From Eutypella sp. D-1 (taxonomy: Eukaryota > Ascomycota > Sordariomycetes > Xylariales > Diatrypaceae), in contig JAJTTP010000009.1 in NCBI GenBank assembly GCA_023313575.1, positions 1,116,001 to 1,180,000 of the forward strand: a stretch of DNA of 64,000 nucleotides, written 5' to 3'. This document shows positions 588 through 33,406 of the stretch, in pieces. Below the pieces are notes generated by a model. The model saw only the letters and a list, made by a program, of their open reading frames with translations, had not been told where the DNA came from and did not search any database. Every line of letters begins with the position of its first letter. Position 1 is the first letter of the stretch. The translations under genes and the position numbers were made by a program.

Positions 588-601
588 AATAATACTTTTA
601 T

Positions 602-1395: not shown

Positions 1396-1409
1396 AATAA
1401 CACTTTTAT

Positions 1410-2049: not shown

Positions 2050-2054
2050 AATAT

Positions 2055-11212: not shown

Positions 11213-11226
11213 TAACGGATTTACGT
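11213..11226 (+). repeat. 14-bp target-site duplication, right copy
   Basis: TAACGGATTTACGT is identical to 3882-3895. After it the gypsy-1 integrase sequence resumes. Confidence 0.85.
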
Positions 11227-12200
11227 ATTCGATAAAATAAAATCAATAATATAATAAGTACGATAACGATATAACATATACGGAAAAACCAAAATAAAAC
11301 GATATAAACTTTACGGAAAACTGTAATTATTACCAGTTAATAAATAATTATAAAAGTTTATTATATTTAATTTTATTACTAAATTACCGATATTAAAAAT
11401 TTTAATAACATGTAATAACTATAATAGCATATTTATAATTGTTAACCGATTTATAAAGTTTTTTTACTTTATTTTATATAACGAAAACACCGACGTAAAA
11501 TAAAAAGTATATATTTTTTTATAATATATTATAATAATATATAGCTTTATATTCGAAATTTTAATAAAGTTTTATAATAAGATTAAAATTAAATTTTAAA
11601 TTTACGATAATTTTTAAACCTTAAATAAATAAATAAATAAAACGAATTAACTAAATATTAAAAACTTATTTTCGATAATATATTAATTATAAATAAAATA
11701 ACTAAATAAAATAATTACTTATCGTATAATTAGCTTATAACATAGCTTATTATAAAAATATACGAATAATATTTATTAAGATTAATTTCGGATTTATTTT
11801 AAACGCTTACTAAAATGCTTATAAAAAAGGATTAAATAATATTAAGCAATATTAATATTAAAATAATTTAAATAATTATATAAAAAAATAAAGGTAAAAC
11901 TTAAACTCGTACGTTAATAAATAAGTAAATATTATAATTAAAAAAGGTTAAAAGGATTAACCTTTTCGGAAAAAAATATGGTTTATTTAATTATAAAAAA
12001 CATTACGATAAAACGACTTAATAAAAAACTCGATTATAAGTATATCGGACCGTACTTAGTTATTAAAAAAAATATTAAAAGATAATTACGAATTAAATTT
12101 ATTACTAAAAATTAAAATTTATTTAATTTTTTATATCTTTTTACTTAAGGATATAACGGATATAAACGTTATAAAAACGAGACGAAATAACGTCGAAATA
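11227..12200 (+). pseudogene. Gypsy-1 pol, second part: integrase core and C-terminal region
   Basis: This continues the element interrupted at 3881. Around 11365-11600 the plus strand reads FITKLPILK...IFIIVNRFIKFFYF, the RIP-altered form of the integrase core pattern DFITxLP...xVIVDRxxK. Around 12030-12140 a segment DYKYIGPYLVIKK...LRIKF corresponds to the C-terminal integrase region (KYIGPFxV...YRLxLP). Stops are frequent. Sequence to about 12480 may be the end of the element. Confidence 0.8.
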
Positions 12201-13025
12201 AAAACAAATAAATACGAAGTAAACAAAATCCTAAACGTACGAATAAAAAAAAACGAATAAAATATAAGGTTAAATAAAAAAATATAATAACTCCGAAAAC
12301 ATATAAAAACCCGTTAATTATTTAATAAACGCTTAACGTTTTTTAAAAAATTTTTATTAACGTTAATAAAAGCGTTAATAAAAATAGTATCTTAATTAAA
12401 ATTACCTAATATATTTATTTTAAACTAATTAAAATCCGAAATAACCTTAAAATTTATAAACGTTTTAACGGACCCCGTAAAACGCGTATTTTCTGCCCGA
12501 CGTTTTTCCTTTTTTAACTTTTTTAAGTTATCGATATTACGGGATACCGTTTTTATTATCTTTTTATACTATATACGTTTTTAATAACGAAAACGGTAAA
12601 GTTTCGCGTTAACCGCGTTAATTTCCTTTTTTATAGCTTTAAGTTTTAATTCCAGTTTTCGATATTAAAATATAACTTTTTATAATTACTCCGGATTAAG
12701 CTTAAATACGTTACATTAACTCCGGTTATAACGAATACACGATAAATAATAAAAAAAATCCGAGTTAAAAACTTTATATTTTAATTAATAACGTTCGTAA
12801 TAAAAATAAAGTGCTATATTAACCGGATCGGATAATAAAACTGCCGTAAAAAAGGAATCGTATTAAAAAGTTTTACGTTAAAATAAAAATATTACGCGTT
12901 TAAAAATCGATTTATTAACACGATTAAATATAATAAAAAGGATAAAAAATAAAAAAATACTTATAACAAAAAAGGAATAAAAATAATAAGTTTTAAGGAT
13001 AAAAACTTCAAAAAAGGAAAAATCG
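12201..13025. repeat. AT-rich RIP-mutated sequence, unidentified
   Basis: No domain is recognised on either strand. It probably includes the 3' end of gypsy-1 and older repeat sequence. No gene is supported. Confidence 0.4.
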
Positions 13026-13455
13026 TGTTATAACTTAATTAAGTTATTAAGCTTTAATAGGATTGGTATAAACATAATCCTTAACCGTAACACTAAAAAA
13101 GATAGTTACGATAAAATAAGCCATATTTAAATTACGTAATAAAAAGTATAATTAAAATAGTTAACTATCCCAGTAATCCAGGATAATTAGGATAACTAGT
13201 TATCTTAACGATTTAATAATAACTATATATTCCAATGTTAAAAATAAAGGATATAAAATGATATATAGTTACGTTTATTACCTTTTTTTTAAAATAATCT
13301 TTAAGCTTATTAATTTATAATATAACTTAATTACTTAAAGCACCCTTTTTTTTATTATCACTAAACGTAACTATTTAGTACTTAAAAACCCCAGCCCTCT
13401 TATTAATATAAACCCCTTAACTGGACTAATAGTTAGGAAAAGACCTGCCGTTATA
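13026..13455 (-). mobile_element. LTR, family L, reverse orientation
   Basis: The reverse complement runs from TATAACGGC...GGTCT (family start TGTGACGGCTGGTCT) to the GTTATAACA-like end. It aligns over its length with 1622-2049, including the variant centre with repeated CTATCC/GGATAA motifs. The 5-bp flanks (AATCG and TAAAT) do not match, so either a TSD was mutated or an end was rearranged. It cannot pair with the plus-oriented LTR at 1622 as one element. Confidence 0.8.
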
Positions 13456-13709
13456 TAAATACATTTATTAAATTAAATACTTATAATACCTTAATTATCG
13501 ACCGATCGATTTAACGATATCGTTATTTTAATTAATTATTTTAAAAGTTTAATAACGGTTAAGAATTAATTAAGCAGTTATTATAAATTAAACGGTTTTT
13601 TAATAAAACGCTTAAGTTAAGTACTTTTTTTTACGAAACTTTTTTTCTTAAAGTTAAATATTTTTATTTATTTATTTTACGAATTTATTAATTTACGCAG
13701 CACCGTTTT

Positions 13710-13870
13710 TTTTTTACTTTTTCCCCGTAAAAATTAGTCCGGTTAATTATAAAAATAATCCTATTTTATTTTTATAATTACACCCCCGAATCTTAATTTT
13801 TAATTAAATTTAGGTTAAATATTAAAAAACCTTTACCCGTATTAAGTCTTTATATAATACGCGAAATATC
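13710..13870 (+). repeat. Gypsy-2 5' LTR portion (direct repeat)
   Basis: The stretch from TTTTTCCCCGTAAAAATTA (13719) to AATACGC (13862) recurs in the same orientation at 29687-29834. The pair is about 16 kb apart and brackets gypsy-2, so these are its LTRs. Exact LTR ends are not resolvable after RIP; similarity may begin near 13,610. Confidence 0.65.
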
Positions 13871-13879
13871 GCTTTTATA

Positions 13880-16800
13880 ACTTTATAAAAGGTTATAAAT
13901 TTTTTTTAAATCGTAACTAATATAATAAATTATATCGGTAAAAAGCTTTATTATGATTTTTTAATTTACGTTTATTTTTTTAATTTATTTTATACGCGCA
14001 AGCGAAAAGTCTTTCGGTATTTATATTTGTTACGGGAAGTACGTACTATAATAATAAACGAAAATAGTTTATTACTTAATTTAATATTAAATTAATATAA
14101 AAACTTATTATAAAGATTTTATTCGGATATAAACATTTAAAAATTTAATAATAAATAAATAAATCGTAAAGATTAACATTTCCGAAAAATAAATAAAGTA
14201 TAAAAAGTAAATTAACGCCATACTTTTATAAATAATACGTATTTATATATATAAAGCCGGGTATCGGAATTACATACGGTAAATACCGATTTAAAATAAA
14301 AGTTTATAACTTTAAAGCCCGACGTATTAAACGGTAATAAATAATCCGTTTTATAAATTAAAAACCGAGTTTTTAAATTAAAATATCGATAAAAAGCGTA
14401 ATTTAAAAAATACGGAATAACGTTTAATAATATAAATAATAATGTTATAAAAGTTAATAATTTATTTAAAAAATTTCGTATAATAATAAACAGTTTTATT
14501 AAAAGAATTAATTTAAAAATAAATTTATTAATTAAAAAAATAAGTTATAACTTTTTTAATTAAAATATATTTATACGGAACCTAATTAATACAAACGCTT
14601 TTATTTAAAATACAGGATTTAATACGTATAAAATAAATACACGATTTACGGATTATTTTAAACAGAATATAAATGGTCCGGGTAATAATAAAGCTTTAAA
14701 AAGCATAAAAAATACGGCTTATTTCGGTGCTAATAGCAGCAGCGGTAATCCCGATTTTAACGGTTTTAATTTTAAGTTTTATTATTTACGTTAAATAAAC
14801 CCGTTTCGTCGCGATTACGACAAACGTAATAATTATAAGGTTTACGGGTATTTTTTTAAAACCTATTTAAATTTAATTAAACTTTTTTAACCGGACCATT
14901 TTCCGATCCGTTTAAAAACTTATACGTTAATATAAAGTTTACCGGCCGGGATAATACCCCGAAGTTTAAATAAAAGGATATCGGTATTTTTAATTTATAT
15001 AAAAAAACTTTATAGATATAAATATAATAATTATAAAAACTCCGGTTATTTTTACCGATCCGATATTATATCGGGACAAATTTAAAACTTTTTTAAAAAT
15101 CTTTTTTCTTATAAATTTTATAAAAAATAACTATTAACGATATAGTTAACCTTTTTAAATAAGGCCGTTTTTATCTAATAAAATAACGAGATTTTAAAAT
15201 ATTAAGGGTAAAGTTTCCGTTATTCGGGTTTTAACGTAATAACCGATACTTTTATATAAAGATTTAAACCCGATCCGGCGATAATTATAACGAAATTTAT
15301 TACTTTTTATTATAACTTTAAAAAACATTTTAAAATTTTTAATTTATTTATTACGTATTTTTATAAAAAGTTATAATAAACGCGTTATATAAATAGTTTA
15401 ACAAAAAATGACCAGAATTAATATAAAGTAACGGTTTAAATTTAAATTAATATTATACTTAATATAAAGCAGTATTTATATTTATTTCGATTTAATAAAA
15501 CTTTAAAAATATATAAATTATAAATAAAAAAAATAAATGCTATTTTAATTTTAATTATTATATAACTTTTTAAATTATAAAGCTTATATAAAAAAATAAA
15601 TATAAACTTTATAACCTTTTTTATAAAGGTAATAAAAAGCTTTATAATAAACCGCGTAATAATAAATTTTACGATAATAAAAATTTAAAATTTAAAAATA
15701 AAAATTAATTTAATCGTTTTAAATAAAATAATTTTTACGAAATTAATAAAACGCGTTATGTTAATAAATACCGCTTTAACCGTAATAATAATTATAACGA
15801 TAACCGTAACCGCGATCGTAATCGTAAAAATAAAAAAAAGGCTTATTATATTAATAACGTTAATAACAGTAAATCGTTTATAAAATCGGTTTTTGAAATT
15901 TCGGAAACTGCTTTAAACGATCTCGTTTATATAATAATAAACGTAACAATTATTTATAATAAATATTACGTAACTTTTTTATCGTTTACGGAAAAACGGT
16001 AATATATTTATTATTATGTTTTAAAACCCGTTTATAACTTTAAAACCTTATTACCCGTAAAAATAATAAAATATATTTATTATTAATATTAATTTTAATT
16101 CGGTTTTTATAATTTAATATTTTAACATATTTAAGTAAAGGAATATAAAAAAGTAAAATTTATACTTTAATTAAAAATTAAACGGTTAAAAGTTAAATAA
16201 TTTATTTTTAAAAAAGCGCCGTTTTTAATATCGGAAAGTGTAACGGTTTTAAGTTTTCATATTTACTTAAAGGTTAAAACGTAAATTATTAAAAAGGTTA
16301 ATAAAAATATTAAAATCTGTTTTAATTTTAATATAAAACTAATTATAATTAATAAGTTATTTTTATAAAAGTTATAATATACTGTAATCGAAAAACCGGG
16401 GCAAATTAAAAAAATCGGTAATAAAATATTTAAAATTTCCGAATAAGCCATTTTTACGGTTTATATTTTTAGTTATAATAAAGATAATAATTTTATATTA
16501 ATAAAAACTTTTAAAAAAAGATAAATTATTAACGATACGTTTTAATTTAATATTTTTATTAATAACAATATATTATACTTATATAAAGCTAATATTTTAT
16601 ATATAAATTTATAAAAAACGTTTAACGTATTTAAAAATTTTACTATTACGTTTAACGTATTATTAAATAATAAAATTATTACCCGTAAAATAATATATTT
16701 TAAAAAGCTTTTTATTTTTACCGGATAAATTTTATATATCGGTATAAAATATAAACCTTTACCCGATAATTATAGCTTTTTTTCCCGAATCACGTATTTA

Positions 16801-19800
16801 TTAATAATATATACCGTAATTAATATTATAAGCTTATACGTAATAATTATAAAAGATATTACGAAATTTACCGTAATTATTATTAAAAATATACGTTTTA
16901 ATATAATTAAAAAAAGCACCGATATTAAATATTACGTAATTAATTAAGGTATAAGTATAAAAGTTTTAGTTTTAAACGTTACCGTAACTTTAATAATTTT
17001 AATACTTTTTTTATTTAATAAGGATATGTATTTACCGATTTTTTATAACATTATATCGGTTTTTATCTTTATTAATACCGAATTCGATATAAATCTTAAT
17101 ATAATAGCTTTAATTATAAACGTTTTATTTATAATGCCGGACTTTATAACGTTACGTATAAATATTATAACCTTTATTATAAATACGGTATATAATAATT
17201 TATTTACATTAAATAATTACGATATCCCCGAGATATTTTTTAATAAATCAATTCCCGATAAATTAATTTTTAACAAGTTTAAAATAACGGATAAATTTTT
17301 AATTACCAGTACCGTTATATTATATAAAGAAATTATTATTAAAAACGGTTTATAATTAAACCTCGAGTTAAATTTTAATAAGTTAAAAATAACCGAAATT
17401 TATTTAATATTTAATATTAAAAAGTTTATTAATTTTTTTAAATACGTTACCGATAAAAACGTTTACATATATATTAAAAACGTTACTTTCGTTAATAAGT
17501 TAATAAACTTTATTACCGTATACTTTAACTTATAAATTAATAAAAGTATTATTAAGATATTAAAAAAAGATTAAATAAAGGTTTTTTTTATTAAAAGATA
17601 ATAAAATTAAAAATTAAGTTTTAAATTATACCTTTTTAATCCTAAAGATAAAAAAGTCCTTAATATAATTTTTAACCGGTTATATAATTTAAGTTATTAT
17701 AAATAAGTTACGAAGCTTTTTTTATTCGCGTATTTTATTTTTATCGTTTAAAAATATATTTACAGTAAAAAGAAAAAATAAATTATAATAAATTTATAAC
17801 CGTTTAATAAAATAATTATACCCGATAATTATTTATTATTTTTATAAACCGACGTTATCGCTTTTATCCGTAATAAACGGTATATTACCGTAATAAACGT
17901 TATAACGTTTTTTTATTAATTTACGGTATATTTAAATTATTACGATCGTTTTATAATAATTAGCCCCCGAAATATTAAGCGTTTTACCGTAATATTTATA
18001 AAATTTCGTAATTTTTTAATTTACGTATAAAAATATATAAATAAATTATTAAAAAGTTATACGTATTACCGAGTTTTTATTAACGATATTATTATTTTTT
18101 CCGATAACGAAAAAAATTATTTATTATATTTTAAAAAATCTTTTAAGCTTTTTATTTCGAAAAATATTTCGATTTTATTTAAAAGATTATTCTTCGGGTA
18201 TTTTTCGGTAAAATTGCTAAAGTTTTAAATAAACGTATTAAATATATTTACGATAATAAAACGTATTAAAACGTTTAAGGCTTTAATATTTTTTAAATAG
18301 CTTAAAACGTTAAAGTAATATTTTAAAATTAACGGTTTTTTACGATATTTATTATTATATTACGTATAATGCATAAAACTTTTATTAAAAAAATGGTATT
18401 ATTAACCGAAAGCCGTAAAACGGGATAAATAATTACCGGTAACACGGGGAAATAATAAATTTATTACCGTTTTATTTATTACGATTTAATTTTTATTAAA
18501 CTTAAGTTTTTTATAACGGTTTAAAGTTTTATATATAATAAGATTACTTTTTTTTATTAAAATCCCGATTACTGCTTTTTTATTTAAATCGACGGATTTT
18601 TTAAAACGGGGTTTCGGGGTTATAATCTTTTATTTTAAAATAAATAAATAGATTTCGGGTATAAATATCCCGGTATTATAAATATAATTAATTATATACC
18701 TAAATCGATACTTTTTAATAACGGAAACCCGTTACGGCCTTTTAAAGCTTAAGGTTATTTATTTAATATAAACAGTTAAACAAAATTTATACAATAATTT
18801 AATCGGTTAATTTCCCCGTCGTTATATTAACCGATTATTTAGTTACGAAAAATATTATCGAATAAATTAATTTTAATATTTCCGGGATAAATAAAAATAA
18901 CCGTTACTTAATTACTATTTTAATATATTTTTTTAATACAATTTACGTATTTATTACGTCCCGGGATAATTAAATTTTATTTTAAACGCTGTTAACCGTT
19001 TATGTAATATGTTTAATTAAAAAAAGGGTAACGATATTAAGCGATTTACGGAGGTACCGGTTTTTAATAAAGTATAAAATAACGATAATAATAATAACGA
19101 CGATACGGCTTTTTTCTTCGAATTTATAAAAGCGATTTTATTTAACGATATAAGGGTTAAATTTAAAATAGGTTACGATAATAATATTCGATATTCCGTT
19201 ATTATATAAAACGTACGGGATAATTATAATAAAGTTATTACAGGAAACCTTTTACGTGCCGGTTATTTATTCGAAATTGTTAACGGATTACTTTAAAATA
19301 TTATACAAATAAAAAAACATAACTTTTATATTTTTTATAATTTAGTTTTAACGTTTATAGTTATAGTTTATAATAATAAATATTATTTTAAATAAGATCG
19401 AATATTATAAAAGTTTAAATTTTACGTTATTCGTAATAAAATTTATTTCGTTAAAAATATATATAAATTATTATATTAGTTATAACTTTAACCGAACGGA
19501 TAAGTAATTTTTTTACGGCAATTATTAACTTATTTATTTTAAAACTTTTTTATTAATATAAATTATTACGAAAACTTTTATAAAAACTATACAGCGGATC
19601 TCTGCAGGGTAAGTTGTCTCAAAGTGGGTCCAAGTTAAGATAACTTCTCTTTAAGTGTTAGAGTGCTAGGTCGATGTTAGGTAAATAAAAGTGGGTCCAC
19701 TACAGGGCAAGTCTCTGTAGGGCAAGTCGGCTCAAAGTGGGTCACTGGTGCGAAGACGAATATTTAATAGTATCTGTAATCGTTATATTCTTTAAATCTA

Positions 19801-22330
19801 TTAAAACTACAAAAGGTGAAATACCTTATATTTATAAACTTATTTATTATAAAGAATCGCTGTTTACGGTGTATAGTAACCGTTTTCGTCGCTATAAAGA
19901 ACCTTATTTCCTTTGTTTATTATTTCCTTTGTTTGTTATTTTCTTTGTTTTATTATAACAAAGGATTATAGTAATAGTATTATAATAATAGTATTATTAT
20001 AATCTAATTCTTATAAATATTATAACAGATTTACCCGATATACCGATTACAAGTATATTTTAATAATTAAACGGTAATAAAACGTATTACGATACGTATA
20101 ACGTTTTTATAATAATCAATTACGTTATATTTAAACGTTTAACGTTTATCCCGGGGTACCGTAAATATACGGTAAAAAATTAAGTTACTGTTTTAATAAA
20201 AGTTTTTTTTTAACCGATTAAAAAATATTTAAAGTTATTATATTAAATCGGGACCGTAAATTTATATCCGCTTTTTAAATGGGTATATAAAAAGCGTTAA
20301 AAATAAAGGCGTTAATAATTATTATTTATTACTTTTAAAAGGATAGTTTTTCCGAGCGAAAAAGTTAAACGGTCGAAATCGTTATTTATTATTATTATTA
20401 TATATATTTTAAGTCGAATTAGGTTAAGTTTCTTTTTTTAAATAAGATTTTAATAACGTATATTTAAAAATTATTTATTTATTTCCGTACAAATAATTAT
20501 TTAAGTTTAAAATATTAAGCTTTATCGATATATTAACGGATATTAACGACGTTAATAAATACGGTTTTTTTTAAATTTATTTTTTTCGAAAATATTTACA
20601 AAAATACGTTTATTTTATTTTCGATTTCGCGGTAAATTACGTAAAATACCGTTACGATTAAAGCTATAAAGTAGTAAAATTTAACGAGGGCGATAACGTG
20701 TATTTACGGCTTTACGACGGATATTATTTACCCGGGAAACCTTTTAAAAAATACTTTTAATAAAAAGTTAGCTTACAAAAGGTTTTACGACGGATCGGAC
20801 GATTAGTTTATAAAATTAATTTGTTATTTACTTTTAAAATTTATCCCGTTATTTCCGTTACTTACTTTTTAATAAAAAAAAATAACGATTTTTTTTAACG
20901 ATAATAGCTTTTACCGGGATTTATCGAGGCCGATTAAAATGTTAACTCGGACGGCGACCGAAATAATATATATAAAATAAAGGTTATTATAAGTTATCGT
21001 TTTAACCCTTATCGAACAGGTTATAAATACTTAATTAAATAAAAAGGGTACAGGTATAAAAAAAGCAAATAACTATTAAAAAAAAGTTACGTTATTCGGC
21101 CGACCTGATTAAGGAATATTAAAATTATAAAAGTAATCGATTTTTTTTATTAACCGACGCTTAAGGCGTTTAAATTAAGACGTAACTTAAAAGGAAAAAA
21201 GGTTGCTTTTGTAAAAATTAGTGATATTGTTAATATTATTATTTTTTAAATATTTAAGCATTTTATTAAAGTTAATAAGTCTTTTTTATAAGGCCCGGTA
21301 TTTTAATATAGTTTTTAAAAAAGGCTGTTTAAATAATAAATAAATAAGTACGTAAGTATATAAATAAAGTATTATATTTAATATAAATAGGTTAAAATAA
21401 CTTACCGGCCGTTATTAACCGGTAACGGGCTGGTGCTTATTTAACAGTTATTAAAGGGCTTTTATTATTTAGTTTTTAAAAGCTTTTTACTTTTTACCTA
21501 GGATCTTAAGATTTCTTCTTAATATATCTTCGATTTTATTACTTTATTAAACCTTATAGTGACTTTATCAGGTTCGAATTTTTTAATAACTTTTTAATTT
21601 TTATTCTGATTATTAATATTTTAATTTATTTATTAATTAAAAAAAGGTGTTAACGGCCGTATTATTCGGTTACGTAAATGCCGTTATTTAATTTTATTAT
21701 TTTTAAATTTAATTATATAAAACGATCGTTACCGCCCCGTATTAGCCGCGGTTTTACCAAGATATTTTTATTTTTATTTTAAAGTTTTTAAATAAATAAT
21801 CCCGCTTTTAATAATTAGTTAATTATATAACGACGATAAAACCATAACGCCGCGCCCGAATAATAATTAATTATATATTAAAACCGAACCGATAAATTAA
21901 AAACGTGTTTTTTTATTTATATAATTATAAAAGCCTTATTACAGATAAAATATATAATAAAAAACGTTACGTATTAATATCGAGATCGTGCCGATATTAA
22001 TTAAAAAAAGGGTTTTTTTAAGTACGAAAACGGTTATATTACCTTAATAAAAGCGCTTAATTACCGGGGTATATTTACCGATTACATTATGGTTTTTTTT
22101 TCGTTTATACCTAACCGAAGCTATATACTCGAAAATGTTTATATACCCGGCTTATATTATTAATGCCGATATTATTATAATAACGCGGTAAAAACAAAAC
22201 GATTTATATAAAAAAAGGTTAAAGCTAATTAATTTATTACAGTTACCGGGTTAAGGCAGCCTGGTTATAAGTGGTTTATTATATTTACGGCTAAGTATTA
22301 AAGACGTTACGGAATAACGGCGGGGATATA
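13880..22330 (+). pseudogene. Gypsy-2, Ty3/gypsy element body, RIP-destroyed
   Basis: Plus-strand translation with stops ignored shows reverse transcriptase at about 18010-18420: RVFINDIIIFSDNEKNYLL (family FIDDIIIFSD), then KNISILFKRLFFGY and NGFLRYLLLYY. Near 20690-20900 a segment YLRLYDGYYLPGKPFKKY...VGRLxY-like...FKIYPVISV is the integrase C-terminal region. The region 14,700-17,900 should hold gag and protease. The open stretch 17026-17355 lies upstream of RT and is a chance survivor. LINE-C interrupts the element at 22331; the remainder and 3' LTR follow 28856. Nothing here can encode a working protein. Confidence 0.8.
19593..19758. repeat. Low-RIP island with 34-bp tandem-type direct repeats
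   Basis: A 165-bp patch of ordinary base composition lies inside gypsy-2. A unit of the form TCTCTGYAGGGYAAGT...CTCAAAGTGGGTC occurs at about 19600-19631 and again at 19712-19744, and GTGGGTCCA recurs between them. No terminal inverted repeat or TSD is evident. It looks like a small, younger insertion or a conserved control segment of the element. The short ORF 19737-19958 starting in it is not convincing as a gene. Confidence 0.5.
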
Positions 22331-25300
22331 ATGATAATGATAATAATGATTTATTTTACGTCCGGGTAAACTATATTATTTAAGGCTGTTTATATATAAG
22401 CTTATAAGCAGGGTTACGTTTAAGTAATTAAGTGCCGATATTATATAATGTATAAAACGGCTGGAGTAAGTTTATCCGGGGATAAGCCGTATTAACGTGT
22501 TACGGTTAATATAAAAAATCCTTTATTAATTATTTACTTACGGTTATCCTTTTTTAAAGCTTTGCTATTTATTTTCGAATCTTCCGATTTTATTTCGGTT
22601 ATTTTACCCGTTATTTAAAATAAATAGTTTTAAAACTTATTGTATTTTATTACGCGCCTGGTTTTTAATCCGACGTCGAATAAGGTTTAATTTTATCGAG
22701 GAAGGTTAAAAAAGCGAAATGGTTTTTATAGCTAAGGAATTAAGTCGTTTTATAGCCGGGTTAGGTTAAAAAATAAAAGGTACTTTTTATAATGTTATAA
22801 TCGAAAACGTGGCCGGCGGTCTTTTTTTTTTTATATCGGTAAAGGTAAAACGTATTATATTTAAAACGTTAATAGTATTCGGTAAAATCGTTATAACCCG
22901 ATCGTTTTATAAAAAGGTGGTATAATATTAAACGTAAAAAAAAAAAAAAACTTAAAAAAAGGTTTTTTTATATAAAAGGTTTTATCGTATATACGATAAA
23001 GGGGTATTTCGAAATTATTATTCGGTAAAAAAGAATTTACGCTTTTTTTTTTTATAATACGTTTAAAATGGGTTAAAGTTATAATACCGTTAGGGTCGGA
23101 ATATTAAATAATTTTAAATTTAATTTAAACGTTTACGGTTTTATTACCGTCGATATTTTTATGCCCTGGTGCTTATTAAATAAAGGAAGTAAATAAGCGT
23201 ATACGGGAAACCGTTTCGTAAAAAGTTAAAAAAAAAATCGGTTTATAAGTTATCGGACGGGTAATTAAATAAGTTTCGAATAACCGCCGTATTATCGATA
23301 TAAAGGTATAAACCGGTTACCGGGGGGTTAAAGTTATATTAGTTTTCTTTTGCTTATTATACCGTTTTATGCGCGGTTATTATTTCTTTATCGAAAACTT
23401 TTATTTAGGTTAAAGGTTTATAAATGGCGTAAAAAAGTTTATATTTATTATTTTAATAAAATATAAATCTTTAGCTTATATGATTAATTTTAAAGCTATT
23501 AAAATAAATAATTAAGTCCGTTAATAAAAAAAAAAAGATAATTATTTTTTTTATATATTTTAATATTTTCGTTTTTATTTAAAAAAAAAAGGTATAAATA
23601 ATAATAATTAACGTTTTATAAAAAAAAAATAAACGCGGGCAGGCCGGGGTTATATCGGTAAGTGGATTTCCTATGTCAACCGCAACACGCTGGTACGGCC
23701 TGTCCCTGGACAGACCTACTCCAGCCGTCCCATACACTACACAGTGTCGGCACCCAGCTAGTACTTAGGTGTAGCCCTGCCTGTAGGCTTACATGTAGAT
23801 AGCCCTAGATAGTATGGTCCACCCGGACGTAAAATTCATCATCATCATCATTATATCGGTAAGTTATAAGCGCGTTAATTATTTTCCTTTAAAATAAGAT
23901 AAACGGGTAATTACGGGATAATTTTTATTTAGCGTTTAAAAGCGTACCGAATATTTTAATTTAATTTACGTAAAAAGTATTTTTATTAATAATATCCCCG
24001 ATTTTTTATAAAAGATAATAATACGAGTAGTACGTTAAATAAGTAACGCGGTTTTAGCGGCGATTTTAAATGGTTTATCCAATTTATTTATAAATAAGCT
24101 TATTTTAATATCGGCTGGTTTAAACGCGTTTTTAATTAAAAGGCGTTAAAATTTTAATTATTAAGTTTTTACGGTATATATTACGATCGGTACCACGTAA
24201 GTTTTAACGGCTTTAACGGTTTTATTTAAAAAAAACCCGTATATAACTTTATAAAAGTGTTATATATAACTAGTTATTTATAACATTTTATTACTTTATT
24301 CGGCGACGTATTTTTTAAAATTAAGTTATAAGTTAAAAAAAACGTTAAATTACCGGATTACCTCCGTTAAGGCCTTAATTTCGAAAACGCCGCCGATAAT
24401 AATAATTACGTTAATTTTAAAGGTTTTATTTTTATAAAAATATTTAAGTTTATATTTTATTAAATTAAAAAATAAAATATTATCTTTTTTTTATTTAAAT
24501 ACGTTTTTTATATCGGTAATTAAAACGGCGGTTATATAAAAAGTTATCGGGCCGGTATATAAAATAACGATATCGTTTATATATTTAAACTTAATATTAA
24601 ATATCGGTTTTTTTTATAACATTAATTCGATATATAGCATGAAAAAAATAAAAGATATTAAAAATTTTTAAGGCATATTATAAAATAAAAAAAATAAGGT
24701 TAATAATAATATTTTTTATATATATAGCCGCCCGCCGATCCGTTATAAAAAAGTCCATTTATCGTATAAGCTTTATATTTTATTTTTATTATTTTAAATA
24801 AAAAATAAAGCGATTACGTAAAACGGCGTTAAAAACATTTAATATATTTATTATTAATAATAAAGTAACGTTTTTACGGGTAAACGTTTATTCGACGTTA
24901 TAAATAACGTAAATAATTAAATCGATTATTAATTTTTTAAAAAAAGCGCCGAATTATTACGGGTAAAATATTTTATAACGTAATGTTTATATTATTATAC
25001 GTTTAATTATTAACTTTTCCAATTTTTTACTTAAATAAAAAAGTAATAATATAAGTTTTTATAATTTAAATTTAATAAAATCGGATTTACCCACTTTCCG
25101 GAGTATAATAATTTTTATTATTTTAAAAACTTAAAAGTAATAATTATAACGGAAGCACGTTTTATATAATATGCGTATTATTTTATTTATTACTAATTAA
25201 GCTAATTATAATAACATAATTATTAATCCGTTTTTACCAGGTGTTATAAATAATATTTATATATACGCGTTTTCCGTTTCCGTTATTAATACCCGAAAGT

Positions 25301-28300
25301 ATTATAAAAGGTTAAGATAAATTTATTACGAGCTTTCGTAATTAAGTTTATTTTAATTTTATAACTGTAATAACTGTTAAGGATTTATAATATCCCCGCC
25401 GGCGGTTTAAAAAACCAGTATTTTATAACGTAACAGATTAATTTTTTTTTCCGTATCGGTAATTACTTTATTTTTATCCTTTATTAATAATAAACGGAAG
25501 TTATTTTTAAATTTATACCAGCCGATAATTTTAAAAATATTTTTATCGTTTTTAGCTTCGGCGATAAGTTTATTTTAATATTCTTTTTTAACTCGGCGTA
25601 CCGGTTTTTTTTAAACCTTAATTAATTTTTAAGTTTTTTTAATATCGCTTATTCGGTTAATACGGTATAAATAAGTAATAGCTTTTTTATAGTTTTTATT
25701 TTATTAAGTAATATCCCGACCGCGGTTATATTTTAATTTACCCGTAACTTTTATAACCCGTTTTAACATTTTTAATAAAATGTTAATAAATGCCTCCGTT
25801 TTTGCTTTAAAAATCGGGTTCGTTAAAAAAAAAAAGGTTATTAAGGTTTTATTTTTAATATAAATGTATTAGTTAAAAAAAACGTAACCGGGCTTTTTCG
25901 GAAAAGCTTAATTTAATACGTAAAAGTTTTTTAAAAAGGTTTACCGGTATTTCGGTTATTATAATATAATAATCGGAGCCGGTATATAAAATATTATCGA
26001 TTACTGCCGTTACCCGTAAAACGTTTAATAAAGTTAAATTTAATATGTTATTTACCGTATAAATAAAAGCTTTTAAATTAAAAACGTTTAATAATTATAC
26101 TTTTATTTATTTTATTATTTTAATACTTGGTTTTTTATAACGGCGATAGCTTAGTTATTACGTTTAATATACCGTATTAAATTTTTTTTTACCGTACCGC
26201 TTATTAAATAACTTTTAATTTTTAAAAAGCGTAAAAAATAAATATTAATTAATTTAACGTTATTAATTTTTATTACGTATGTATTTAAAAAAATAAAGAG
26301 GTAAAATTACGTAATTTATAAATTAAGGTTTTATCGTACGTACGTAAGCATTCGTAATATTTAAAAAACCTAGTTTTCCGTAAAAAAGAAAACGTTATAT
26401 TTTAAATAAGTTTTAATCAGTTTTTTATTATCGGTTATTTTAACTTATGCTTATAGCTTTTATATTAAAATAATATCGGTTTTAATTTTAATTACCGTAT
26501 TTAAAACGGTATTATATATTACCGGTTTTTTACGGATATTTATTTAAATAATGCGTAAGTATTTTCCTTATCCTCGTATATCGCGCTATAAGTTATAACT
26601 TATAAAAAAAAGGGTTTTAATTAACGCCGTTTTATATAACTTTTATCTTTATTTCGTTCCCGGAAAGTCGTAAAGGGCGGGGGTAATAAAAGGTTTTATT
26701 AATATTAATAACTAATTTATCGTATTTATTGTTATCGGCTTTAAGTTTTATCGGGTATTATTATTTTTCGAAGTTTTTAAAAAAATATCTTTTTATTTAT
26801 TACGTATTTATTAACTTAATAAAAAGCTTTTAATTTAGCATTAATATTTTTATACTTTTTATTTTTTAAAACGTTAAAAGTTAACGATATTATCCGTGTA
26901 AACTTAATTAATATTTATTAGTTTTATAAAAACGTTTATAATAAAGGCTTTTTTATTTAATAATTACGCTTCCGTTTTTTTATATTTTTTATTTTTTTAT
27001 TTTAAAGCGGGTAAAAAAATATTAATATTTAGTTTTAAGTTTAAAGTTAAGGTTAAAATACGCGTAAGCCCGGCGTTAAAGTGGTAATTATTACTTTTAA
27101 GGCTTAAAGTGTTAACGTTATTATATTAAAGGTTAAAGATTTTACCGTTACTTTAAGTTTATTTTTATTAAACAAGCAGGGTATAAAAAGTTATTATAAA
27201 TATAAAGGCTTTTTATAATTAAAGCATTTAAAGTTTGCTTAATATATTTTTAAATTTCCGTAAACCTTCCGGTTATACCGTTTATATCGTTTTAACTTAT
27301 CGTAATTCCGACCGTCGTAAAAATTTAAATAGCGGTTATATTACGTAATTTTCGGGGTTTTTTTTTATAACCTGGTTAATTTAAAGTCGAAAACCTTAAA
27401 GCTTTTAACTTTACGTAAAAAATTATTATTTATTTTTATTATAAGGATTTTAAAACGTAACGGCTGGTTTTATAAAAATTAATAAGTTTTAATTTTATTT
27501 AAGTAACGATTTTGTATTAAATAACCTCGTTTACGGGCTTTATGCCGTTATTTATACGGAGTTTTTTTAATACTTTTTATAAAATATACGAAAACTATTA
27601 TTTAACCTTTTTTAAACGTATGCCGGTTTTATTTATAACGGTAAAGCGGTTTTATATATATTAACGGGATATTTCGTTTTTAATTAAAAATGTTTAGCCC
27701 GTTTTAATACGTTAAATTTTAATAACTTTAAATAAGTTTAGGTTTAATAATTCCATTAACGCTATTTTAACGTTTATAAGTTTAAATATTGCTTATTCGT
27801 GGTTCTTTTTTAATTTAAAAAAAAGGTGGCGGTTTAAATATTGGCTTAGGCTTTTTTTTATTTAAATTTTTTATCCGGGGGGGGATAGGGCCATTTTTAT
27901 TTTTACTTAAGTTAATCGAAAGCGTTATTTTTACCGCGTTTTACGCGATAAAACTTAGGTTTAATTTTTTTTATTAATTTTCTTTTACCGTTACGTTTAT
28001 ATACGATATTTACAAAGCCTGTTAAAATAATTATATAAGCTTTAGCTTACCGTCGTTATTATTAGCTAAGCCTTTATCCGGTAATCTTTATCGAAAAGTG
28101 TTAATAAAAAGGGTAAAAAATAAAACGTATTAAGATTAAATAAAGCCGTTAAGCTTTTATTTTTTTATTTTTTTAATATTAATGTTAACAGTAAAAGTGG
28201 TAATAACTGTGGTAACAATAATAACGTGTTTTATAACGTTTATATCTAAGTTATTAATAATTTTAATTATTACCTTTTTTATTAATTAACGGGAAAAGTT

Positions 28301-28855
28301 TATTTATATTATATATGTATTTAACTTAAAGCTTAAAAAAACCGAATCGAAATAAACGGAAAATGCGATTAAAATATTAAACTTTATTTTTATTACGGCT
28401 TTTATTTTTTCCTGTAATATTTATACGGAAAAAAGGATAAAGTTATTTAACGCATTTTTCGGGGCTTTTAAAATAAAAAAAACCGGTTATATAAGCCTTA
28501 AAATTTTACGCTTTTTAAGTTAAGCTTTAAGGTTATAAATACCCGTGCTTACTTTTTTAATTTTAACGTTTTTTAAGTTATTAAAAATAGGCACGGGTTT
28601 TTATAAAAAAAATATTATTGCCGCGGCGATATCGTAAATACGGATAATTATCGCGGGTGTTTTAAAAGCAGGCCGTTTAACATTTTGCCCCGGGGGGGTT
28701 TAAAGTTAAAAAGGCGGCGGTTTTATTATTTTTAATATTTATAGGTATACTTAATCTAAAGGCATAAGGTAAATAAAGCTTACGATATAAATAAGATGTG
28801 TATGCGTTAAAGTTTTAATAATGGTTAAGGTAAAGAAAGTAAAAGGAAAAAGGAT
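22331..28855 (-). mobile_element. LINE-C, second near-full-length LINE, RIP-mutated
   Basis: This copy is collinear with LINE-B over about 6.3 kb plus a 187-bp nested insertion. It runs on the minus strand from GGAAAAAGGAT at 28855 (5' end) to an ATG-repeat (CAT)n tail at 22331-22350. RT motifs are at the equivalent place: KFKYINDI (catalytic YVDD block) at about 24560-24590 and the QGSP block at about 24625-24690, both RIP-altered. It interrupts gypsy-2 and so is younger than it. A TSD could not be read. Confidence 0.8.
23664..23850 (+). mobile_element. 187-bp LINE-tail unit nested in LINE-C, 14-bp TSD
   Basis: The unit reads GGATTTCCTATGTCAACCGC to a (TCA)n tail and equals the 3' terminal segment of the LINEs. 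It is flanked by TTATATCGGTAAGT at 23650-23663 and 23851-23864, an exact 14-bp duplication. LINE-B at about 6015-6028 has the same target once (TTATATCGGTTAGT). It keeps normal composition (GTGTCGG, GTCCACCC intact) while its host is heavily RIP-mutated, so it inserted later. It begins within a base or two of where the piece at 11046 begins. Confidence 0.9.
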
Positions 28856-29514
28856 ATTAAATACTTCTTAGCTTTTATCGGTCGCTGTTATAAATACTTT
28901 TACGGATATTTATTTATACGTAATTAATTTTTAAAAAAAAACTTTATATATAAAATAAAAACCCCTTGCTGTATATTTTATTATAACCTAATGCTTTTAT
29001 ATACCATTTATTCTTTCCATTATTATTTAGCGTTAATACGATTATAACGTATACGTATACGTAACTCGTAAACCCGTAAACGTTATTAAAAAATTCGGGG
29101 CAATTACGGTTTCGCCCCGATTTCGGTACTTTTAAAATAAAGGGTTTTATCGTATACGGTTAAGCCTGGTTTTAATAAATGCCGGTAAGTAACCGTATTG
29201 TTTTTATTATATACGTGGCTTATACGTAACGGGGTATTTTCGGCACGTAATCGGTATCGGTATAAAAGTATATTTTATTTTAATCGGGTAAACTGCGGTT
29301 AATTAATAAATAAGGTAAAGTTTATTAATAATTAAATCGGTTATAAACCATAAAACTTTTATATTCGACGAAAACCCCGAATTTTTATTATTAAATATTT
29401 TTTAAAGTTAAAATGTTAATTTTCGTTTTTTTTTAAATAATAAATATACCGTAAGCTAATTATTAACGTTAAGCCTTTACTTTAATGTGTTAAAATAAGC
29501 CGTTAAAGTGGCAG
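28856..29514. repeat. AT-rich sequence, probable gypsy-2 3' portion
   Basis: There are no recognisable domains. The sequence lies between LINE-C and the tRNA-like head and 3' LTR, so it should include the distal part of gypsy-2. RIP composition throughout. Confidence 0.4.
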
Positions 29515-29592
29515 TTATTAAAGGATTCGAACCTTTTTTCTTACGAAAGGGAATAACTAAGTATGTAGCCATTACACCAGGTAACCGTTAAA
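29515..29592 (-). mobile_element. tRNA-like SINE head, copy 3 (partial)
   Basis: On the minus strand GGTTACCTGGTGTAATGGCTAC (D-arm-like) is followed by a perfect B-box GGTTCGAATCC within AAAGG/CCTTT. The acceptor strands GGTTACC and AATAACT pair at five of seven positions, counting one G-T pair, and the two mismatches are C-A, as expected if G was turned to A by RIP. It resembles the heads of SINE copies 1 and 2. The anticodon stem does not fold, so it is a SINE head or tRNA relic, not a working tRNA gene. No LINE-type tail was found downstream. Confidence 0.6.
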
Positions 29593-29679
29593 ATTAAATA
29601 ATTTTTATAAATTAAATAATTTTTTAATAAAGTATTTAAGTTAAATATCGTTTTACGATATTTTTTAAGCTTAAGTATT

Positions 29680-29850
29680 TTCCTTTTTTTCCCCGTAAAA
29701 ATTAATTTAATAAAACGTAATAATAAGTTTATTTTAACCTACCGATTTATACCCCCGAATTTTAATTTTTAATTAAATTTAAATTAAATATAAAGGATTT
29801 ATTACCGGTATTAAACCGTTTTTAACATAATACGTAAAGCTTTTTATTAA
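29680..29850 (+). repeat. Gypsy-2 3' LTR portion (direct repeat)
   Basis: This is the same-orientation match to 13710-13870, including CCCCGTAAAAATTA, ACCCCCGAAT and TTTTTAATTAAATTTA landmarks. It closes gypsy-2. Confidence 0.65.
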
Positions 29851-29859
29851 AATCATGTT

Positions 29860-31837
29860 AATAATTACCGCACGATAATAGCCTATATCGTTATATAATA
29901 AAATCTCGGATTTTATCGTGTATAATATAAGTTAAAGAAAATTAGATTTTTTTTAAGTAAATAAAATACGATATTTATTTCAACCTTTATATAAAAGATT
30001 ATATATAATATAATTATATATATAACGATTTAAAGTTATTTAATATTAATTAATAATTACCGGTTTATTAATTATGCGATTATAAATTAATAAAAGTGAT
30101 GCGGTCATTATAGGTGGACTTAAAAGAATAGAATTTATTAATAATGTTATAAATAAAAAAGATCCCAGGCTAAGTGGGTGGCTTTAAGCCACTTACTTAA
30201 TGGTGGCCTTAGTGGGGCACCTATTTAAGTAAGCTATTTATTTATTTTATTTATTTATTAACAGCCTTTTAAAGATCTTATATTATAATTTTTATACAAA
30301 ATACGGTAAAAAATAATATATTTTATATTATATTTTTTTAATAATATTTTATTTTTTTATTTAATAAAAATTGAAATAAATCGAAATAAATATTTAAATT
30401 TAATATTATTATATAAATTAAATTCGAAAAGCTTTAATTACGTACGGTAGTATTAAATAAAAAGTATATAATTATATATTTATTTTTATTTTTCCTTTTT
30501 CTTTTAATATTATGTACGAAAATAGCTTTTTAAAACATTTTAAAAAAGTAATTTTAACGGGAGGTAAATACGGTATAAAATCTTATAAATCCCGGCGGAG
30601 CCGGAAATAATAATAATAAATTATCGTACGATAAAATATAATAATTAAATTTATAACTAATTAAAATATTATTTTAAATATAAACGAAATAAACGAAATT
30701 TTAATATTACACAAATATAATTAATTTCGAATAATAACTATTTAATATAATATTTAATATTTATTTCGTATAAGTTATAATAAATATTATATAATTTAAA
30801 TACGAATTAAACATAATTAAAAATATTTTAATAAATAATTTTTACGGATAAAACAAAAAGTATTTTTACGTAATTACGAAATTTTTTATAATTAAGATAT
30901 AAAAGTTATTATAGAAAAAAAATCGAAATGTTTTAAATTAATAAAGCCGTATAATTTTAATTTTAAACCGATAAGTTATTATATTTAATAATAAAAAAGT
31001 AATTTCGTACGATAAATTTAAAATAATTTTATACGATAAAACTTTTATGAAATAAATATAACCCGTATAACCAGTTTTAATACGTAAGATAAATATTAAT
31101 ATACGATAAAATATTATTAATATATAACCGATACGATACGTTTTAACTTTAATATTTAAAACCGTACCGATTTTATTTTTAATAAAAAGGAAAAATACGT
31201 ACGATATACTTTATTACCGGAAAAGGAAAATTATTAAAAAAGTATTTTTATACGATATAAAAAATTAATAATAAATATTACCGTACGATAATAATTACCC
31301 GGAATATAATCAACGTAAAAAGTTAATAATCTTTTTAACTTTACATAAATATTTTTATTTAAATTATTACGTTTATAATTAAAACGTATAATTTATTATA
31401 ATAATAATATATCGAAAACGGACCGATTAATATTATAATAATATTAATATTTTAAAAACGTTAAAAAAAGGACCGGAATTATACCGGAAAACAGTACGAT
31501 ATTTTATATAATAAAGTACGAATTTTTGTTAATTATTACCGACGGTTAAAAATTATAAAAAATTAATATTATACCGTATTCCCGGATATTTTATTTAATC
31601 GTGCGGGAAATTTTTATATTAATTATATTAATTTAAATCTGATTTAAAAATATATATACGAAATATTTAATATATATTTTAATATAAATATTAATTATAA
31701 TATTTATTACACCGATTAATTAATATTAGTTTTCTTACGAAATAAGTAAAATAACCCGGATAAAAATATAATAAAAGTTTTAAAATTATTATTTAATAAA
31801 TTATAATTTATATAATATATTTTTTATACGGTAATAA
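29860..31837. repeat. AT-rich RIP-mutated block with one preserved 130-bp patch
   Basis: No gene is visible. About 30108-30240 is less mutated and carries a short hairpin, AAGTGGGTGGC/GCCACTTACTT, near 30165-30200. It might be the end of another LTR or DNA element. The rest (30,420-31,837) is a decayed repeat in which I could not name a domain. Confidence 0.45.
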
Positions 31838-32726
31838 TTAATAATAATAATAATGATTTATTTTACGTTTAAAATGGACCAGTTATTTAAATATAAATAT
31901 AAGCTTATTATATAAATTAATATGGTCCGTATTATATAATATATAAAACGGTAAAAATAAAATTTTATAATTAATAATTAGTTATAACCGGTAAAACCCG
32001 TATTAACGTATTACAGTTAATAAAAAAAAAGCTATTTAAATAAGCCGTATAATTTATAACGGCGGTATTTATTAAATTAAAATAACGTAAAAAGGAAAAT
32101 CGTAATAAAGCGGGTAATTTAATTAAAACGTTAATTAACCGGGGTTATTAATTAACGTTAATTAATAAATTAAAATTACGTATTAATATATATTAAAATT
32201 TTATTTACGGCCGTATAGCTTTAATAAATATTAACAGTTACGGTTAAACAATACGGTACGATAAATACGTATTGCGGTTATGGTTTAATTATAAAATATC
32301 GGCCCGGTAAATTAAACGTATTTAAATAATAAAGCCGATATTATAATAAGGTTAAAGCTTTAATATTATAAAAAGAAAACGGGGGCGTTAATTAATTAAG
32401 CCATTACCGGACCGGAAAAATAAGTCGGTAACTAACAGTAATTAACGGAGTTACGTTAATTTTACGCCGGCCGGAAAAGCCGGAAGGTTAAAATTTATTT
32501 AAAAAATAAATTTTAATTAATTATGCCGGCCCGGTAAGGCCGGAAAAAAAGGGGTGGTTTCGGTAAAGCCGGAAAAGTAAACCCGAAAAGTGGGTCCGAT
32601 TTATTACCTGCGGGAAAAAGCGGGACTGGCGGTAAAACCGTTTTAATTATTAAAAGATTTAAACCTTTTTTCCTTTTTTTATATAAAAGGAGCAGCCTAA
32701 GTGCGTAGTTATTATACCAGGTGGCC
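31838..32726 (-). mobile_element. SINE copy 2, heavily RIP-mutated, inserted in the TPR-MYND gene
   Basis: It aligns with SINE copy 1 from the ATG-repeat tail (31838-31855) through the shared body (for example CGGACCGGAAAAATAAGTCGG near 32405) to the tRNA-like head. The head reads GGCCACCTGGTATAATAACTAC on the minus strand from 32726. The B-box is mutated to GGTTTAAATCT. GC-rich blocks of copy 1 appear here with C-to-T and G-to-A changes on both strands, typical RIP. The head end abuts coding sequence of the TPR-MYND gene. The flanks could form a RIP-eroded TSD (ATTAATAGCGGC right, ATTAATAATAAT left), but the simple repeat makes this uncertain. Confidence 0.8.
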
Positions 32727-33406
32727 ATTAATAGCGGCTAAAGCAATACGGGCGTTATAAAGTGGTTTGTGTCTTTTGCGCCAGTCTTGACCCTGGCATT
32801 TCTTAGAGTAATACCAAACCGAGCGGCAAGCAGAGTAAGCCGAGAGTTGATTAAGAGCAACCATTTCATTCGCGGGACACTAAACCGTAGCAATTAATAC
32901 TCGTATGGTCACAGTAGTCAAGCATCACTTATTACACTCACGTGATAGTTGCCACACAGGACCTCATGTTTCTTGTCCCCTTTCATCCGCGTGGCCCTGG
33001 CATCCTCGAAGTTGCCCTGCGCCTCTCGCAGCCTAGCGAGATTGTCCCTGGTAACGGCGGCGTCGAGCCTGGGACCCATACCCAGACCGTTTGGTTTCCC
33101 CTCGCGGACGTTGAAGGCCTTCAGGAGCGCGTCCTCGGCCTCGGGAAGGCGGCCGGCCTTGAGGTAGGCCTCTCCGAGCGCGTTGAAGCTGATGGCGGCC
33201 TGGACGGATGACTCGGAGAAGGCACGGATTTTCAAGGCTAGTGCTTCGCGGTGGAGGGCAATAGCTTCATCTAGTTGACCGGCTTGGTCCAATAGGTTGG
33301 CGCAACTGTTCTTGTCGACGGCTACGGTGTTAGCTTCCATGATTGCGGATACAATGTCCGGATCGGTGTTGTCGTCAACGCCGGTAAGGTTAAGAAACGG
33401 CTCCAT
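32712..33406 (-). pseudogene. TPR protein with C-terminal MYND zinc finger, damaged by SINE and RIP
   Basis: Model: exon 1 33406-32942 (155 codons), intron 32941-32880 (62 nt, GTGAGT...TTTAG), exon 2 32879-32712. The first ATG is 33406 (MEPFLNLTGVDD); upstream in-frame codons have no ATG. Exon 1 encodes TPR pairs (NLLDQAGQLDEAIALHREAL; ALGEAYLKAGRLPEAEDALL; NLARLREAQGNFEDA), as in kinesin-light-chain-type repeats. Across the splice the frame reads LCGNYHCP and then a MYND-like series AYSACRSVWYYSKKCQ, QDWRKRHKPLY. Three positions that are Cys in MYND fingers are Tyr here, each by a TGY-to-TAY change. The SINE begins 15 residues after the finger and supplies the stop. The finger can hardly bind zinc normally. 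Without splicing the ORF would end at 32918. TPR-MYND proteins are common fungal proteins of unclear function. Confidence 0.75.

What the first reader, a model, noticed from the sequence alone, without database searches (positions are those of the whole stretch)
32712..32879. RIP appears to have leaked from a SINE into the MYND zinc finger of a single-copy gene
The last exon of the TPR-MYND gene ends where SINE copy 2 begins (32726). In the finger, three positions expected to be Cys in MYND domains are Tyr: SAYSAC, WYYSKKC and HKPLY. Each is TGC/TGT read as TAC/TAT, which on the other strand is CpA to TpA, the RIP transition. All lie within about 110 bp of the SINE, and exon 1 further away looks clean. 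This suggests mutation spreading out of a repeat, with a defined functional consequence (lost zinc ligands).
Basis: partly seen in the sequence, partly recalled or inferred. Interest (0 to 1): 0.9.

Follow-up and report, generated by a model that had tools for sequence, protein, structure and literature searches.

The report
Transposon-edge mutations in a zinc-finger gene
A small fungal gene beside a block of mutated transposons has lost three of the eight amino acids that should hold zinc in its finger, by changes of the type the fungus uses against transposons; spill-over of that defence is the likeliest cause, but the decisive comparison with an allele lacking the transposon could not be made.

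Summary
A minus-strand TPR-MYND gene (exon 1 33406-32942, exon 2 32879-32712) encodes Tyr at finger positions 170, 179 and 196, where 30 of 30 aligned homologues have Cys. Its ligand pattern is CCYCYCHY, against CCCCCCHC in 49 of 53 finger-spanning relatives. Each Tyr is one CpA-to-TpA step from Cys, 32, 83 and 110 bp from a SINE ending at 32726. The SINE is about 890 bp and is the outermost repeat of a 65-kb AT-rich block. It is clearly RIPed: 35 of 100 C:G sites, 1 other substitution. Exon 2 is single-copy as far as the search reaches; RID-like genes are present. Against leakage: exon 2 indices are ordinary, conserved CpA targets hit are 3 of 9 in exon 2 and 0 of 6 in exon 1 (p 0.23), and no other allele of exon 2 was found. 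Light RIP leakage is the best explanation (0.6), a new instance of a published phenomenon.

The parts
32942..33406 (-). Exon 1 of the TPR-MYND gene (155 codons, TPR repeats, first zinc ligand Cys151)
   Evidence: 0 of 13 invariant columns deviate
32880..32941 (-). Intron (GT at 32941, AG at 32880); two TGA codons in the exon 1 frame where the near-identical allele P0001 has Trp
32712..32879 (-). Exon 2: rest of the MYND finger; last four residues and the stop codon are read from the SINE
   Evidence: zf-MYND 21.6 bits, below the cut-off 22.7, against 39.9, 40.4 and 40.1 in the three homologues scanned
32836..32836 (+). Changed base at ligand position 170 (Tyr; Cys in 30 of 30 aligned homologues), CpA-to-TpA type, 110 bp from the SINE
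32809..32809 (+). Changed base at ligand position 179 (Tyr; Cys in 30 of 30), CpA-to-TpA type, 83 bp from the SINE
32758..32758 (+). Changed base at ligand position 196 (Tyr; Cys in 30 of 30), CpA-to-TpA type, 32 bp from the SINE
31840..32726 (-). tRNA-headed SINE of about 890 bp, head at 32726, ATT-repeat tail near 31840, strongly RIPed
   Evidence: copy boundaries; tRNA-Ser called in copy L023, an undetermined tRNA in L013, none in the window; RIP-type changes
31837..31843 (+). Possible target-site duplication ATTAATA, left copy (low complexity, overlaps the tail)
   Evidence: chance about 0.014 within 7 start positions
32727..32733 (+). Possible target-site duplication ATTAATA, right copy, inside exon 2
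1..32524 (.). In-window part of a 65-kb AT-rich RIPed block (C72 1083074-1148524), with GC-rich islands at 710-1394 and 23634-23829. The composition edge falls at 32524, inside the SINE, because the SINE head is less AT-rich

Best explanation
The MYND exon of a single-copy TPR-MYND gene was cut near its 3' end by a SINE at the edge of a 65-kb RIPed block. During one or a few sexual cycles RIP acted on the repeat and, lightly, on the first 100-odd bases of adjoining single-copy DNA. Three template-strand CpA sites became TpA. A Cys codon is always TGY and so always offers a TpG/CpA target whose RIP product is Tyr, so the hits removed three of eight zinc ligands and probably the fold of the finger. 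Splice sites, frame and the TPR exon are intact, so a TPR protein with a dead finger may still be made. Shown: the Tyr residues, their mutation type, the RIPed neighbour, no second copy found, RID-like genes. Inferred: that RIP rather than ordinary transition mutation made them, that they post-date the insertion, and that the finger no longer binds zinc.
For: Tyr at three positions that are Cys in 30 of 30 aligned homologues. The ligand pattern is intact in 49 of 53 finger-spanning relatives; of the other four, P0005 and P0062 differ at one ligand, P0071 at one plus a gap, and P0051 at three. All three deviations at invariant exon 2 columns are CpA-to-TpA, about 0.002-0.01 by chance at transition bias 2-8. 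Residues seen in no homologue and reversible by one CpA step: 4 of 9 in exon 2, 0 of 11 in exon 1 (the fourth, L202, lies where the alignment is loose). The adjoining SINE end is RIPed: 35 of 100 C:G sites against 1 other substitution; pairwise against copy L020, 23 of 57 in the first 100 bases, 1 other change at C:G and none at A:T. Exon 2 has no second copy found. Two RID-like ORFs have the EQT triad (triad as in PMC6709928, passages seen). Leakage over such distances is published: PMC2973834, passages seen.
Against: RIP indices in exon 2 are ordinary: (CpA+TpG)/(ApC+GpT) 1.13 and TpA/ApT 1.22. The first 200 bp outside the SINE lie within the 5-95% range of background windows; one of the other three edges examined (C72 1188226) does show a RIP-like first 200 bp (3.4 and 0.41), but that edge was set by composition and may lie inside a repeat. 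Conserved CpA targets hit: 3 of 9 in exon 2 and 0 of 6 in exon 1, p 0.23. CpT is hit as often as CpA in the SINE copies, but 0 of 3 conserved CpT targets in exon 2 were hit. W177, another exon 2 deviation (Phe in 27 of 30), is not RIP-type. The two intron differences from P0001 are CpC. Five CpA sites that would give stops (Q166, W177, Q184, Q186, W188) are unhit. No sister exon 2 was found.
Confidence: 0.6

Rival explanations
1. Relaxed selection. The insertion removed the native 3' end and terminator, or the finger was already dispensable, and ordinary C-to-T transitions (possibly raised by cytosine methylation at the heterochromatin edge) then accumulated. No RIP outside the repeat is needed.
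For: Transitions are the commonest mutations and Cys codons become Tyr by one (general knowledge). Dinucleotide indices in exon 2 are normal. Some relatives are annotated as ending within or before the finger (P0008 Diatrype stigma; P0050 and P0053), though P0053 looks like intron read-through and these may be annotation errors. P0071 has Tyr at another ligand position, 183.
Against: All three deviations at invariant exon 2 columns are CpA-to-TpA. There is no frameshift, stop or splice-site loss, and exon 1 is intact at all 13 invariant columns.
Confidence: 0.25
2. Direct RIP of a once-duplicated exon or gene whose other copy has been lost; exon 2 was itself a repeat when it was mutated.
For: The mutation type is RIP-like, and RIP normally requires a duplicate.
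Against: No second copy was found: 1 DNA match, itself; none of the 28 other SINE matches runs more than 7 bases past the SINE end; the protein finds only its own two exons and one match at E 0.07. By composition exon 2 is far less mutated than the repeats here.
Confidence: 0.1
3. The finger works in a changed form, or the Tyr codons are read as Cys in sexual-stage mRNA because Sordariomycete A-to-I editing prefers UpA.
For: All three changed A bases follow U, the preferred -1 base (PMC11156358, passages seen). Reading frame and splice sites are kept.
Against: 1 of 3 sites lies in a predicted hairpin loop, against 12 of 27 for all UpA sites of the CDS. The +1 base is C, C and U, not the favoured A or G. 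No RNA data.
Confidence: 0.04

Closest known systems
RIP leakage at AvrLm6 and LmCys1, Leptosphaeria maculans (PMC2973834; abstract and passages seen)
   Same: Single-copy genes close to RIPed, AT-rich transposon blocks; RIP-type changes near the repeat; no duplicate of AvrLm6 found
   Different: There 295 isolates gave seven RIP alleles of AvrLm6, each with 4-6 stop codons, and a gradient; here one genome, three detected changes, no stops, no shown gradient, and a zinc-finger gene rather than an effector
RIP leakage in Cladosporium fulvum (PMC9453070; abstract and passages seen)
   Same: RIP signature in single-copy DNA
   Different: Called there by a composition index, which exon 2 here does not show
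Dim2-dependent RIP of single-copy regions flanked by repeats in Neurospora (as described in PMC12543289; passages seen)
   Same: A route by which unique DNA beside repeats is mutated
   Different: Flanked by repeats; here a repeat is known on one side only; not tested
TPR-MYND protein MGN70_003392 of Eutypa lata and its Xylariales relatives
   Same: 70% identity over 93% of the query, 212 against 210 residues, same intron position
   Different: Three of eight zinc-ligand positions are Tyr here

Membership tests
RIP leakage | Mutated sequence is single-copy | tested here: met
   (searches that score best candidates only)
RIP leakage | Adjacent repeat is RIPed | tested here: met
   RIP-type at 35 of 100 C:G sites in the last 167 bp, 1 other substitution; pairwise counts agree
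RIP leakage | Changes in the unique DNA are C:G-to-T:A in the species' RIP contexts | tested here: met
   3 of 3 at invariant exon 2 columns are CpA-to-TpA; but W177 at a 90% column is not, and the two intron differences from P0001 are CpC
RIP leakage | Density of changes falls with distance from the repeat | tested here: inconclusive
   3 of 9 (exon 2) vs 0 of 6 (exon 1) conserved CpA targets, p 0.23; composition within background
RIP leakage | Alleles without the repeat lack the changes | not testable with these tools
   no exon 2 of a near relative in the protein database; P0001 ends in the intron
RIP leakage | RIP machinery present | tested here: met
   two RID-like ORFs with the EQT triad; activity not tested
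zf-MYND (PF01753) | Eight zinc ligands CCCCCCHC | tested here: not met
   CCYCYCHY
zf-MYND (PF01753) | Score above the Pfam gathering cut-off 22.7 | tested here: not met
   21.6 bits; three homologues 39.9-40.4
TPR-MYND family of Xylariales | Full-length similarity and shared intron position | tested here: met
tRNA-derived SINE | tRNA-like head | tested here: met
   tRNA-Ser in copy L023 and an undetermined tRNA in L013, 2 of 5 copies scanned; none in the window copy and no Rfam match there
tRNA-derived SINE | Dispersed copies with common ends | tested here: met
   13 of 28 other matches end at 32725-32726; 20 of 51 other matches start at 31839-31841 and 13 at 31831-31834
tRNA-derived SINE | Target-site duplication | tested here: inconclusive
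   ATTAATA on both sides, low complexity

The most novel reading that the evidence does not exclude
RIP and Sordariomycete A-to-I mRNA editing are mirror images at one dinucleotide: RIP on the template strand turns TpG into TpA, and sexual-stage editing prefers UpA and reads it as UpG. The three Tyr codons may be tolerated because sexual-stage mRNA is edited back to Cys, so a finger damaged by RIP leakage would work only in fruiting bodies.
Probability: 0.03. Interest if true: 0.85.

Novelty: new member of a known kind. Interest (0 to 1): 0.36.

Why it matters
If the leak is real, it is a compact example of collateral damage by a transposon defence: a small, countable set of changes in a conserved domain, with the rest of the gene intact. 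It points to a rule that can be tested across fungi: Cys codons (TGY) always carry a RIP target whose product is Tyr, so zinc fingers and disulphide-rich proteins next to repeats should be especially exposed. It also suggests that leaks too light for composition indices could be found by looking at invariant residues.

Tried and rejected
Exon 2 as a separate protein query: no candidate, hence no other allele. RIP indices by window: no signal in exon 2. A decline of RIP along the SINE towards the gene (44-68% of C:G sites 300-799 bp from the head, 13-42% in the first 200 bp, with references L010, L013, L020, L023; lower with L012, whose own body is AT-rich) was rejected as edge decay, because copies with AT-rich DNA around them (L006, L008, L011) show the same kind of GC profile; sequence context is a likelier cause. 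A strand bias of RIP in the SINE end was looked for and not found (19 of 46 and 16 of 54). Editing in hairpin loops: not favoured. Paper searches on a TPR-MYND family in fungi, on RIP with zinc finger, cysteine, tyrosine and leak, on Eutypa lata genomes and on restorative editing were seen as listings only; none named this case.

Rows and results set aside; 26 of 82 rows did not span the finger, and 3 of the 56 that did (P0079, P0080, P0081, long TPR proteins without the finger) were left out, leaving 53; columns with fewer than 20 homologue letters were skipped; conserved columns with a deviation other than Cys-to-Tyr (S34, W177 at the 90% level) were left out of the target tally. One search placed the start codon one base off, so its codon-level list is out of frame and was replaced; its column counts do not depend on codons. 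One search calls a site C (or G) if at least three copies have it, which by construction cannot count T-to-C changes; the pairwise counts do not share that bias. One search used 4 of 8 private residues for exon 2 (p 0.018); the right count is 4 of 9, by hand p about 0.026. Its last printed line was typed, not computed. The alignment has four copies in the wrong orientation and was not used.

Full report
What is there. The window is C72:1116001-1180000 of a 48.5-Mb, 72-contig genome. The gene's closest named relative is Eutypa lata (P0002, 70% identity), and most of the named hits are fungi that I place in the Xylariales from memory, so the species is probably in or near the Diatrypaceae (inference). 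On the minus strand lies a 210-codon gene: ATG at 33406, exon 1 to 32942, a 62-bp intron with GT and AG, exon 2 to a TAA ending at 32712. It carries TPR repeats and a degenerate MYND finger. The junction is supported by homologues: P0002 runs on into the finger, and P0003, an unnamed ENA ORF matching P0002 over exon 1, diverges right there.

The Tyr residues. Among 30 homologues, 13 exon 2 columns and 13 exon 1 columns (of those with 20 or more letters) are invariant. The window protein deviates at three in exon 2, all Cys to Tyr (170, 179, 196), and at none in exon 1. At columns conserved in 90% or more, exon 1 deviates at 1 of 34 (S34) and exon 2 at 4 of 16, the fourth being W177, where 27 of 30 have Phe; neither S34 nor W177 is RIP-type. 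A wider search gave a base rate. Of 53 related proteins that span the finger, 49 have the full CCCCCCHC pattern, P0005 and P0062 differ at one ligand, P0071 at one plus a gap, and P0051 at three (probably misannotated). The window has CCYCYCHY. By recall of the MYND cross-brace (ligands 1, 2, 5, 6 hold one zinc; 3, 4, 7, 8 the other), one site keeps three of four ligands and the other two of four. Pfam zf-MYND falls to 21.6 bits, under the 22.7 cut-off, against 39.9, 40.4 and 40.1 in three homologues. Solved MYND fingers match the E. lata protein (DEAF1 2jw6, SMYD3).

The repeat. Of 28 other matches to the last 167 bp of the element, 13 end at window 32725-32726, 3 run 5-7 bases further and 12 stop earlier; none enters exon 2 beyond that. 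Further left, 20 of 51 other matches start at 31839-31841 and 13 at 31831-31834, so the element is about 890 bp, with its head on the gene side. ARAGORN finds a tRNA-Ser in copy L023 and an undetermined tRNA in L013, 2 of 5 copies scanned, and none in the window. Rfam gives a sub-threshold tRNA match at 29512-29586, where I see the related copy, and none at this copy. I take it as a long tRNA-derived SINE. A possible 7-bp target-site duplication, ATTAATA, brackets it (chance about 0.014; low complexity). The gene's last four residues and stop codon come from the SINE. Segmentation puts a 65-kb AT-rich block at C72 1083074-1148524, with two GC-rich islands. Its composition edge (window 32524) falls inside the SINE, whose head is less AT-rich.

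RIP in this genome. In 20 aligned SINE ends the fraction of sites changed C-to-T is CpA 128 of 285, CpT 176 of 381, CpC 143 of 743, CpG 47 of 406; in the window copy 10 of 16, 11 of 21, 11 of 40 and 3 of 22, with one other substitution. The way the unmutated state was set there cannot count reverse changes. Pairwise against copy L020, without that bias, the first 100 bases have 23 RIP-type changes at 57 C:G sites, 1 other change at C:G and 0 at A:T. RIP here therefore hits CpA and CpT alike. In the AT block CpG is 3.95 times expected and CpA 0.22. DNA methylase matches include two ORFs with the EQT triad of RID/Masc1 proteins, one in this window at 59583-61832 (triad per passages of PMC6709928).

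Is it leakage? For: all three deviations at invariant exon 2 columns are CpA-to-TpA, expected for any one with probability 0.12-0.22 at transition bias 2-8, hence about 0.002-0.01 for three of three. Residues found in no homologue and reversible by one CpA step are 4 of 9 in exon 2 and 0 of 11 in exon 1 (p about 0.026 by hand; one of the four, L202, is in a loosely aligned stretch). No second copy of exon 2 was found. Against: RIP indices of exon 2 are ordinary (1.13 and 1.22), and the first 200 bp beyond the SINE lie inside the 5-95% background range. Of three other edges on C72, one (1188226) has a RIP-like first 200 bp (3.4 and 0.41), but those edges were set by composition. At conserved codons CpA targets were hit at 3 of 9 in exon 2 and 0 of 6 in exon 1, p 0.23; CpT 0 of 3 and CpC 0 of 3 in exon 2. 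So if RIP leaked, it leaked lightly, and its fall-off with distance is not shown. The only near-identical allele, P0001 (99% over 74% of the query), covers exon 1 and about 48 intron bases. One exon 1 residue differs (S34 in the window, not RIP-type), and two intron codons read Trp where the window has TGA, C-to-T-type on the same strand as the Cys changes but in CpC context (direction inferred). Its exon 2 was not found in the protein database.

Why Cys to Tyr. A Cys codon is TGY, so it always contains TpG, CpA on the other strand, and the RIP product is always TAY, Tyr. Of the nine conserved CpA targets in exon 2 six are in Cys codons (my reading); three of these six were hit and none of the other three (Q184, W188, H192). 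That fits chance among targets (20 of 84, by hand), so no special targeting of the finger is needed.

Known kind. RIP leakage into single-copy genes next to RIPed transposons is published. In L. maculans the degree of RIP in single-copy DNA follows proximity to repeats, and that paper cites a Neurospora leak of at least 930 bp (PMC2973834, abstract and passages). In C. fulvum single-copy RIPed DNA is reported on all chromosomes (PMC9453070, abstract and passages). A Dim2-dependent route to single-copy DNA flanked by repeats is described in PMC12543289 (passages). My listings on RIP leakage, RIP with leakage, cysteine and effector and RIP with zinc finger, cysteine, tyrosine and leak named no Cys-to-Tyr zinc-finger case, which is weak evidence because only open-licence papers are held and listings are capped.

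Novel reading. Sexual-stage A-to-I editing in Sordariomycetes prefers U at -1 (PMC11156358, passages), so it would read the RIP product TpA back as TpG. The three sites fit at -1, but only one lies in a predicted loop and none has A or G at +1. Nine held papers contain both 'A-to-I RNA editing' and 'repeat-induced point mutation'. In the passages I saw of three of them the links made are editing of RIP genes and RIP as a mutagenesis tool, not repair of RIP hits. I give it 0.03.

Verdict.

Noticed in passing
window 59583-61832 (minus); L027 976-2805: A 749-aa stop-to-stop ORF with a C5-cytosine methylase domain and the EQT triad of RID/Masc1 proteins lies in this very window, about 26 kb from the gene; a second EQT ORF (609 aa) is on contig C67.
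   Followed up: partly
SINE copies L006-L024 and window 32560-32726: RIP in this genome hits CpT as often as CpA (46% and 45%), CpC 19%, CpG 12%, unlike the CpA-dominated picture I recall for Neurospora.
   Followed up: partly
window 710-1394: A 685-bp island of 65% GC inside the AT block, overlapping a SINE-head match at window 1229-1400: probably a copy that has largely escaped RIP, like L010, L013, L020 and L023.
   Followed up: no
window 31100-31643: AT-rich (19% GC) yet without any match elsewhere: either an old repeat beyond recognition or single-copy DNA fully RIPed on the other side of the SINE.
   Followed up: no
window 32880-32941; P0001: The near-identical allele P0001 has Trp at two intron codons where the window has TGA, both CpC context on the + strand.
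   Followed up: partly
P0005 (Mycena amicta): A basidiomycete protein 59% identical to this one, ranking above many Xylariales hits: horizontal transfer or contamination.
   Followed up: no
P0008, P0050, P0053: Homologues annotated as ending within or before the finger (Diatrype stigma, two Xylaria): annotation errors or independent losses.
   Followed up: no
SINE copies, 0-199 bp from the head: The head is less AT-rich than the body in most of the RIPed copies profiled, also in copies with AT-rich DNA around them.
   Followed up: partly
C72 1188226 onwards (L044): At another AT-block edge the first 200 bp outside the composition edge have RIP-like indices (TpA/ApT 3.4, CpA index 0.41).
   Followed up: no
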